In this document: positions 1 through 22,741 of the stretch, piece by piece
Position numbering within the stretch: position 1 is the first letter of the stretch
Layout: each line of letters begins with the position of its first letter
Source: Darksidea phi
Taxonomy: Eukaryota > Ascomycota > Dothideomycetes > Pleosporales > Lentitheciaceae
Direction of reading: 5' to 3'
Length of the DNA stretch: 64,000 nucleotides
NCBI GenBank assembly: GCA_030770425.1
Contig: JASJFT010000020.1
Coordinates: forward strand, 294,162-358,161
Translations under genes and position numbers: made by a program
The notes under the pieces: generated by a model
Told to the model about the DNA's origin: nothing
What the model saw: the letters and a program-made list of their open reading frames with translations, nothing else
The model's database searches: none

Positions 1-2160
1 CCGCCAGCTTGTGACATGACTTGATCGATGACTTCACCAGCCACACGGACAACCTAGTTTGCGTTAGTTTCATCCAGTGGATCGAGAGAGGTACTTACCC
101 TAGCCATATCCGCAAATGTGGGGTTCTTGAACACATCGGCCACCGTCATAGATAATCCCTCTTCCCTGGCTGCGCCAACAAGTCTCATAGCAATGATGCT
201 GTCGCCGCCAAGTTGCTTGCATCTATTAGTACGGTAAATAACGCTACCCAAGCAGCCAACTTACGAAAAAGCTATCGTCCTTCTCAATAGAATCCTCCAC
301 CATATCCAACAACTCACTCCAGAGCGTCAACAACTTCTTCTCTACGAAGTTCGGTGGCGCCGATTTCAACGCTTCAGTCGCCATGACACCCGCAGCGGCG
401 ACCATATCAGCCGCAATACCAATTCGACTTCCAGCATCACTAGTCGCACTCAAACGTCGCGAGCGAATAGAGCCAGTCTCCAGAGTTGGTCTCCCGCGTA
501 CCGACTGCGATGCCCGCCTTGCAAGCATGCCCGCCATCTGACTTGTCATCTCGTTGACAGTGGACTGTCCGGGAGCTGGAGCATTCTTGTTCTTGGAAAG
601 TACTTGGTCGACGATCTGGGGCATCATTTCGCTGACGATGGAGCGTATGAGATGGCTCCAGTCAGGTGCGCCGGACGGCATTGCTGGTGCAATGTGTGGT
701 GCACCGATTTTAGGAATAGGACGCAATGAAGCCATAGGATCCGGGATATCGGAGCGAGGCGAAGGCATCAGCGAGTGAATCGTTGGTGTTGGCAATGGTG
801 GCGTAATGCATGGTTCCGGCTTGTCCTCGATGGCCGCATCGAGCTCTGCAACTGTCTGACTGGCATCTACGAGAGCTTGAGCAAGAATCTTGGCCATAAT
901 GGATGACATATTCTTCGCTTCATCGTCCGAAACCGAATCTGTCCAGTAGGAGAAGCGTACGCCCTCGTCATTGCGAGTTGCATCGATATTGACAGTGATG
1001 GCAAATTCGCTAGGATCATATGCGTCCAGATGCTCGAACTCCACGTTCATATCTCCTGACGGTTGACCTTCCGCTGCGCCATGGTTCTGCACCGACACAG
1101 CCGTGTTGAAGAGTGCTTTCCCAGAGAGACCGAGGTCGTGCTGGAACTGCGCGAGGGAGCAATGCTGATGCGGCAAGCTCTCGATGAAGTTGCTCTGCAC
1201 TTTTTGAAAGATGTCAAGAAGTGAGAGGGATTGAGAGACCTTGGTACGTGACACCAACATGTTGATAAAGGCTCCGACCGCGTTCTGGATATTGTCCACT
1301 GGAACGTTGCGGCCAGAGGTTAGGTAACCATAGCATACGTCGGATGAACCGGTATATGTACGTAGGAGCAGTGCCCAAACACCGAGCAGAATGTTAGCGA
1401 AAGTGACATTGCTCCGTTCCGCGAGAGTCTGGACTTCTGAGAAACGATCGAAGTCCATATAGAGGGAGTGAAGCTGTCTCTCCTTGCTAGAATGTTGCGG
1501 AGCAATGGGGAAGTAGCAGGGCTTGACACCACGGAGCTGTTCTTTCCAGTAGTTGATGGCTGCGTCCGCTGGCAGACTGCGCAGGTACTTGATATAGTCG
1601 CTGTACAGTGGCCCTTCTTCAGCCGATAGACGACCTTCATAAGCGTCTTCGAGGTCGTGTCTGATGACGGCGTATGAGCCACCATCTATAACAGCGTGAT
1701 TAATCTCCATCTTGACGACAACTCTGCCGGAGCTTGTCTGCACGATTGTGAACTGATGCGGAAGACGAGGCTTCTTCTTCCCATTGAGGTTACTGTACTT
1801 GATGGCGTTGAGCTTATTGTTAAGCTCGGAGTCATCGCATGTGTAAATCAAGAGGCCAGTATCCGGATGTTTAACAACGATCTGGTCGAAAACACCTCCC
1901 TTGCAGACGCTATCCACAAAGATTGTGCGGAGAGCTGGGTGACGATCGACGACTTTCTTCCAGGCATCAGCGACCTTTCGCACGTCAACCGCACCGCGTT
2001 TGGTCTTGACTTCGAAGGTGGAGAAAGACCAATAGGACTCGGGGTCTTTGATCTGGCTCAGAATCATTCCCGATTGCATCGAAGCGCAAGGGTATATTTC
2101 CTCCACCTGGTCATAAGACAAGATACCTGCGGCCGGCAGACTCTTGATGACACGGTCCAG
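1..2160 (-). other. NRPS module 6: C5, Pro/Ser-rich linker, T6; no A domain
   Basis: C5 (about 2130-840) begins EIYPCASMQSGMILSQ and has NHAVIDGGS, with asparagine at the first histidine position. It is followed by about 165 residues (roughly 830-340) rich in Pro, Ser, Met and Ala, with none of the A3-A10 motifs, and then by T6, QLGGDSIIAMRL near 200, split by the intron 264-216. After the intron 98-54 the frame continues (VVRVAGEVIDQVMSQ) to the window edge. The carrier has no adenylation domain of its own, so it must accept a chain or residue loaded elsewhere, or act before a terminal C domain outside the window. Confidence 0.8.

Positions 2161-22741: not shown

What the first reader, a model, noticed from the sequence alone, without database searches (positions are those of the whole stretch)
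1..22741. NRPS carrier domains alternate between two sequence types with period two
Carriers followed by E (T1, T3, T5) read GGDSIxAMQ(V/L) and then an (I/V)LRS(R/K)S-like helix. Carriers followed by C, or by the window edge (T2, T4, T6), read GGDSIxAMRL and then IF/VFxxPxxxDxA. The alternation is perfect across all six carriers. It implies growth of the gene by duplication of a two-module block (A-T-E-C-A-T plus C). It also predicts that T6, an R-type carrier, is followed by a C domain beyond the window.
Basis: partly seen in the sequence, partly recalled or inferred. Interest (0 to 1): 0.75.

Follow-up and report, generated by a model that had tools for sequence, protein, structure and literature searches.

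The report
Alternating carriers in a fungal peptide synthetase
A very large fungal peptide-making enzyme carries two kinds of carrier domain in strict alternation because every second one feeds an epimerase; this is a known kind of carrier difference in a known enzyme family, though other parts of the enzyme suggest that it was built from repeated units.

Summary
The gene leaves the window and ends at -2130; spliced it encodes 7,982 aa: A-T-E-C-A-T-C-A-T-E-C-A-T-C-A-T-E-C-T-C-T. T1/T3/T5 read Q and precede E; T2/T4/T6 read R and precede C. The predicted C after T6 exists. Missed: module 6 has no A domain, and a seventh carrier has Ile for the active Ser. The gene belongs to the NPS4/NRPS4 family (Fusarium fusahexin synthetase, Cochliobolus NPS4; Aspergillus Pes1 is a shortened relative). 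The carrier alternation is no evidence of block duplication: in 50 other fungal synthetases with non-alternating order, carrier type follows the downstream domain, not parity (59 of 71 conflicts), and bacteria show the same marker. Other domains do support growth by repeats: E1/E3/E5 form a family-only clade (97/92), C2/C4 likewise (95), C1/C3/C5 less firmly (94/91). A domains are mixed: A1+A3 group (96/97), the A2/A4 cores do not (AU p=0.002), while their C-terminal parts do, weakly. Some relatives lack two modules' worth of domains. Of interest to specialists; not a new kind of system.

The parts
20197..21979 (-). A1 adenylation domain (three introns inside); motif A3 reads TSGTTGQPKL, A7 GYLTGDL and A8 RIELLEIE instead of PKG, Y(R/K)TGDL and RIELGEIE
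19885..20163 (-). T1 carrier, GGDSISAMQV, precedes E
18377..19899 (-). E1 epimerization domain, HHLVIDLVTW
16976..18325 (-). C1 condensation domain that follows E1
15195..16918 (-). A2 adenylation domain
14892..15170 (-). T2 carrier, GGDSIGAMRL, precedes C
13469..14864 (-). C2 condensation domain, HHAVYDGWS
11864..13405 (-). A3 adenylation domain
11549..11827 (-). T3 carrier, GGDSIAAMQV, precedes E
10247..11557 (-). E3 epimerization domain
8861..10201 (-). C3 condensation domain that follows E3
7187..8800 (-). A4 adenylation domain
6831..7159 (-). T4 carrier, GGDSIAAMRL, precedes C
5496..6806 (-). C4 condensation domain, HHALYDGWS
3909..5456 (-). A5 adenylation domain; presumed to charge both T5 and T6
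   Evidence: reuse of module 5 reported for fusahexin
3547..3878 (-). T5 carrier, GGDSITAMQL, precedes E
2233..3564 (-). E5 epimerization domain
829..2178 (-). C5 condensation domain that follows E5; followed by a linker with no A domain
21..393 (-). T6 carrier, GGDSIIAMRL, in an A-less module; followed left of the window by C6 (-316 to -1644) and a Ser-less T7 (-1708 to -1980), stop codon -2128 to -2130

Best explanation
The gene is an NPS4/NRPS4-family nonribosomal peptide synthetase of a fungus (probably pleosporalean), built to make a cyclic hexapeptide of alternating D and L residues. Shown: domain order, E and C active-site motifs, no A6, Ser-less T7. Inferred: T1, T3 and T5 present their amino acid to the following E domain, so the chain end there is D and C1, C3 and C5 join D to L; T2 and T4 feed L-specific C domains; T6 is charged by A5 (as reported for fusahexin) and C6 cyclises and releases the peptide. 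The carrier alternation is the mark of carrier class: carriers before E tend to have Gln five residues after the active Ser and lack the FxxP segment, carriers before C tend to have Arg/Lys and the FxxP segment. This class is older than the gene, so the alternation of carriers only mirrors the alternation of E. Separately, the gene did grow by repeats: modules 1 and 3 are sister copies in A and E, module 5 is an older copy in E, and modules 2 and 4 share an ancestor in C, while the substrate-binding core of A2 or A4 was probably replaced later.
For: Family: 120 homologues listed of 584 scored, best 87% over 2,341 aa; two named NPS4 (Stemphylium 64%, Curvularia 63%); 105 of 121 give the uninterrupted order T-E-C-A-T-C-A-T-E-C-A-T-C-A-T-E-C, 16 do not because of truncated, split or extra hits. 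Class: in 50 non-alternating synthetases Q in 90 of 108 carriers before E, R/K in 31 of 45 before C; of 71 carriers where parity and next domain disagree 59 follow the next domain, 4 parity, 8 neither; in 12 stretches of three bacterial genomes Q in 14 of 16 before E, R in 19 of 28 before C; in PvdL, whose T-E stretch aligns to T5-E5 in a solved structure, the carrier also has Q. Repeats. End of the line: T6 with Ser 92 of 92, C6 HxxxDG 92 of 92, T7 with GGDS 0 of 92.
Against: Q is missing in 102 of 359 family carriers before E, and in the 46 shorter family-like proteins Q stands in only 32 of 80. The LRS-type segment is not general: 38 of 153 carriers before E in the 73 other synthetases. C1/C3/C5 is below the 95 mark, and inside it C3+C5 (84/66) is weakly preferred over C1+C3. 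All odd A together: 36% of bootstraps, not rejected (p 0.605; 0.467 for the core). The A6-A10 grouping of odd copies (90/87) held only in a 57-row set; with all 79 rows it needs 2-3 changes at three cut places, while the even copies stay one group at two of three. Product, charging of T6 and the docking role of the Gln are not tested. The A codes differ at all five A domains from those of a Fusarium relative, so the peptide may well differ from fusahexin.
Confidence: 0.82

Rival explanations
1. One reading: carriers alternate because a single A-T-E-C-A-T(+C) block was duplicated as a whole inside this gene.
For: E and C trees group odd and even copies inside the family; modules 1 and 3 are sisters in both A (96/97) and E (96/96); the C-terminal part of A groups A2 with A4 (87/85 in 57 rows; 88 and 94 at two of three cuts in 79 rows).
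Against: Carrier types also track E in non-alternating genes and in bacteria, so they need no block duplication; A2 and A4 are rejected as one clade over the whole A (p 0.033; p 0.0505 with more rows) and over the core (p 0.002); no A6 and a different C type (C6) in the third unit.
Confidence: 0.35
3. Chance resemblance of a handful of residues.
For: Six carriers alone give only 1 in 20 (arithmetic; the six carriers are those).
Against: 359 and 346 family carriers, and 153 and 83 carriers of 73 other synthetases, show the same split.
Confidence: 0.01

Closest known systems
Fusarium NRPS4 (fusahexin synthetase)
   Same: Five modules, module 5 reused, cyclic hexapeptide of alternating D and L residues (PMC10967133 passages; PMC12340964 passages). 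A Fusarium albosuccineum relative, P0093, has the same domain order here; that P0093 is NRPS4 is my inference.
   Different: All five A specificity codes differ between the window and P0093.
Cochliobolus heterostrophus NPS4 / Alternaria AbNPS2
   Same: Same subfamily by sequence: 63-66% over the searched part to Bipolaris, Curvularia, Stemphylium and Alternaria proteins.
   Different: ChNPS4 is in print with four A domains (PMC2823734 section 28; PMC3554632 table passage); the window keeps an A1, with altered core motifs.
Aspergillus Pes1 / NRPS1
   Same: Slot models assign its domains to A1 T1 E1 C1, then A4 or A2, T4 C4 A5 T5 E5 C5, and in the complete ones T6 C6 T7.
   Different: T2, A3, T3 and E3 are missing, with differing relics of A2, C2 and C3.
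Carrier classes next to E/DCL and LCL domains (LGGDSI, LGGHSL)
   Same: Carrier core covaries with the neighbouring domain (PMC10212144 passages); Gln versus Arg at the same position in bacteria.
   Different: In this fungal gene both classes keep GGDSI; the difference sits five residues after the Ser and in the following segment.

Membership tests
NPS4/NRPS4 synthetase family | Order (A)TEC-ATC-ATEC-ATC-ATEC-T-C-T | tested here: met
NPS4/NRPS4 synthetase family | Sequence relationship to named NPS4 proteins | tested here: met
   Stemphylium NPS4 64%, Curvularia NPS4 63%
NPS4/NRPS4 synthetase family | A-less last elongation module and degenerate terminal carrier | tested here: met
NPS4/NRPS4 synthetase family | Cyclic D,L hexapeptide product; role in surface hydrophobicity | not testable with these tools
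   literature only
NPS4/NRPS4 synthetase family | Cluster with ABC and MFS transporter genes as in Fusarium | tested here: inconclusive
   ABC transporter pieces at 28380-31073 among ten ORFs scanned; no MFS match among those ten; the rest of the window was not scanned
Carrier classes before E and before C | Carrier sequence class follows the downstream domain irrespective of position | tested here: met
   with the exceptions counted there
Gene made by whole two-module block duplication | All domains of odd and of even modules trace to one ancestor each | tested here: not met
   E and C2/C4 yes; C1/C3/C5 94/91; A5 not joined to A1+A3 in the best tree; A core of modules 2/4 rejected

The most novel reading that the evidence does not exclude
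This family evolves in whole D-L units: synthetases lengthen and shorten by two modules at a time so that the E/C register is kept (Pes1 types without T2 to E3; other relatives that begin at module 3), while A cores are exchanged independently of the C-terminal part of A and the T/E/C chassis. At the same time A domains are shed at both ends: A6 is absent in the family, and A1 lost its core motifs in the window's subfamily and then disappeared repeatedly while T1 and E1 stayed intact, so that four working A domains feed six carriers. (Odds lowered from 0.35 to 0.3, in which the odd A C-terminal group did not hold with all rows.)
Probability: 0.3. Interest if true: 0.6.

Novelty: new member of a known kind. 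Interest (0 to 1): 0.4.

Why it matters
It separates two things that look alike in sequence: carrier class, which reports the next domain and nothing about history, and module ancestry, which has to be read from E, C and A. It gives a simple, imperfect marker (Gln versus Arg/Lys five residues after the active Ser) for guessing whether an E domain follows a carrier, also at contig edges. If the loss of A1 with retained T1-E1 is real, NPS4 enzymes are a good place to study charging of carriers by a distant A domain.

Tried and rejected
Pairwise identities alone suggested that A domains do not alternate (39-44% everywhere); with family sampling, own-genome and bacterial A domains they do (odd one side of a branch, 99); with other fungal E-containing synthetases added, not cleanly. 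My first reading of the A split, that the A6-A10 part separates ATE from ATC modules across fungi (99/99 in 57 rows), did not hold when all 79 rows were used: ATE/ATC then needs 5 changes; the 22 rows dropped for time included the awkward ones. Crossover inside C1/C3 as the origin of Pes1 types: both halves of the C after E1 are C1-like in all seven proteins tested, so no sign of it; relics of A2, C2 and C3 point to piecemeal deletion. A1 absence as annotation error: possible for ten models that begin at the Met matching window Met766; less likely for the Alternaria/Bipolaris group, which have other N-termini. A prokaryotic promoter scan before T1 has no meaning for a fungus and was ignored. 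Clonostachys rosea NPS4 (PMC7513725, passages) is described there as an eleven-module peptaibol synthetase and shares only the name. Tentoxin synthetase (PMC4999850, passages) has no E domain in its stated order. Two paper searches asking for all of five and six terms found no paper. I did not search print for the Gln/Arg marker itself, for A1 loss or for two-module loss. Recombination in bacterial NRPS genes is in print (PMC8097286, search listing and start of abstract only).

Full report
What is there. The window is a stretch of contig C113 of a 51.4-Mb genome in 477 contigs; the gene has introns and the best protein match is from Lentithecium fluviatile, so it is a fungus, probably pleosporalean (rank recalled). 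The NRPS gene lies on the minus strand and its 3' part leaves the window. With the left flank fetched the gene was spliced by hand: 14 exons, introns GT-AG, from ATG at 22741 to a stop at -2128 to -2130, 7,982 aa. Domain models built from this protein give A1 T1 E1 C1 A2 T2 C2 A3 T3 E3 C3 A4 T4 C4 A5 T5 E5 C5 T6 C6 T7, after a weak C-like N-terminus. HHxxxD is present in all three E and (H/N/S)HxxxDG in all six C domains.

Check of the observation. All six carriers are as described, and T6 is followed by a C domain. There is no A domain between C5 and T6, and T7 reads FFQLGGDIMGL with no Ser. The same genome holds a second gene of the same order on contig C7; all seven matches to the E-specific model TIGR01720 fall in these two genes (a lower bound).

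Is it special to this gene? 120 homologues were listed of 584 scored. 105 of 121 proteins, window included, show the uninterrupted order T-E-C-A-T-C-A-T-E-C-A-T-C-A-T-E-C; 16 do not. Their carriers before E have Q in 257 of 359, before C R/K in 284 of 346. A further search listed 120 of 2,538 matches, 119 of them new; by slot models 46 are family-like and 73 are not (threshold: 60% of domains clearly assigned). In the 46, Q stands in only 32 of 80 carriers before E, R/K in 54 of 71 before C. In the 73 others, carriers before E have Q in 123 of 153, before C R/K in 66 of 83; FxxP stands in 0 of 153 and 60 of 83, the LRS-type segment in only 38 of 153 and 9 of 83. Fifty of the 73 have a non-alternating order as read by my models, which can miss domains. 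There, 71 carriers have a parity (counted from the first E) that disagrees with the next domain: 59 follow the next domain, 4 parity, 8 neither. These proteins are related, so the counts are not independent. In 12 stretches of three bacterial genomes, chosen around E domains, Q stands in 14 of 16 carriers before E and R in 19 of 28 before C. A carrier tree of 126 rows has a 41-row clade (97) with only carriers before E: 18 family, 6 Pes1-like, 17 others; 8 other fungal carriers before E (P0187, P0190, P0223, P0227) and the bacterial ones lie outside. That the carrier core covaries with the neighbouring E or C domain is in print (PMC10212144, passages seen); I recall earlier work by Linne and Marahiel on two PCP classes but did not see it.

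How the gene grew. Trees used six family members of my choice (window, C7, P0019, P0067, P0093, P0096), three Pes1-like (P0146, P0158, P0180) and twelve of the other E-containing synthetases. E domains: the 24 family rows are one clade against 24 others, 97/92; inside, E1+E3 96/96, E5 100/97 (careful). C after E: family C1/C3/C5 94/91, with C3+C5 84/66 inside (P0225_C3 and all P0227 rows dropped). C after T: family C2/C4 95 (quick; C16 rows left out), with C6 in a separate 13-row clade of terminal C domains (99). A domains: with own-genome and bacterial A domains only, odd A are one side of a branch (99). With other fungal synthetases (79 rows, quick) a 40-row clade (99) holds 18 family odd A, 21 A of other or Pes1-like ATE modules and one ATC; seven ATE rows lie outside. 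In a careful tree of 57 of these 79 rows (P0093, P0227, P0225, P0205, P0223, P0190, P0187 and one C16 row dropped for time) A1+A3 96/97, A5 apart, all odd together in 36% and A2+A4 together in 0% of 200 bootstraps; A2 sits with A2 and A3 of P0172 and P0154 (100/99). AU tests: all odd not rejected (p 0.605); even p 0.0505 (79 rows) and 0.033 (57 rows). Cut at motif A6, in the 57-row set the C-terminal part groups odd (90/87) and even (87/85), while the core rejects even (p 0.002) and not odd (p 0.467). With all 79 rows and three cut places (quick), even is one group in the C-terminal part at two of three cuts (88, 94), never in the N-terminal part; odd needs 2-3 changes in the C-terminal part and 3 in the N-terminal part. 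So exchange of the A2 or A4 core is likely; the A evidence for one origin of all odd modules is weak, and that reading rests mainly on E.

Two-module changes. Slot models on the 119 proteins show two kinds of shorter relative. In Pes1 types P0146 and P0148 C1 runs directly into A4; P0134 and P0140 keep A2 and the C-terminal halves of C2 and C3 between C1 and A4; P0149 keeps A2, half of C2 and a tail of A4; P0147 and P0157 have A2 in place of A4; P0192, P0216 and P0191 keep part of C3. All ten examined lack T2, A3, T3 and E3. P0158, P0161, P0164, P0166, P0167, P0170, P0208 (unnamed sources), P0138 (Cornicularia) and P0180 (Chaetomium) begin at A3; truncated gene models cannot be excluded. Both changes keep the E/C register.

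A domains at the ends. 40 of 105 family proteins begin at T1; T1 keeps its Ser in 39 and E1 its HHxxxD in 38. In print ChNPS4 has four A domains. The four full-length A1 domains of the window's subfamily (window, P0002, P0007, P0012) lack the canonical A3, A7 and A8-Gly motifs (0 of 4 each; 45, 59 and 56 of 59 in other A1 domains), but A7 is also altered in all 46 A2 domains of the subfamily, so A7 alone says little. A1-bearing and A1-less genes are interleaved (6 changes on a 54-row tree). Loss of function of A1 is an inference, and ten of the A1-less models may be annotation errors.

How it most likely works. E domains set D residues 1, 3 and 5; C1, C3, C5 accept a D donor; T6 receives the A5 residue, as reported for fusahexin, where module 5 serves positions 5 and 6 (PMC10967133 passages); C6 closes the ring. 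These steps are inferred from the family. The five A codes differ from those of a Fusarium relative (positions by recalled motif spacing), so the peptide may differ.

Verdict. Observation confirmed; the alternation is a known carrier class in a known family; growth by repeats is supported by E and C domains but not as one clean block. Interest 0.4.

Noticed in passing
G000:C7:67784-88236 (L005-L007): A second synthetase with the same ATEC-ATC-ATEC-ATC-ATEC-TC order in the same genome; its A1 has canonical core motifs, unlike the window's A1.
   Followed up: partly
window 20197-21979: A1 has PKL for PKG in motif A3 and Leu for Gly in motif A8; gene models of several close relatives start just after it.
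   Followed up: partly
window -1708 to -1980 (left flank, L001): Seventh carrier with GGDI; 0 of 92 family tails examined have GGDS there.
   Followed up: yes
window 28380-31073: Pieces of an ABC transporter gene upstream of the synthetase, on the plus strand; the Fusarium NRPS4 cluster also holds one.
   Followed up: no
window 42374-44404 and 47144-52804: A neutral ceramidase gene and a 1,886-aa phospholipase D-like gene.
   Followed up: no
P0188: Listed by its source as 'Nonribosomal peptide synthetase 4 disrupted by TE' in Fusarium poae; here it begins at C2.
   Followed up: no
G000:C16:124950-138831: Synthetase ending in A-less T-C repeats, order like a ferrichrome synthetase (the likeness is recalled).
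   Followed up: no
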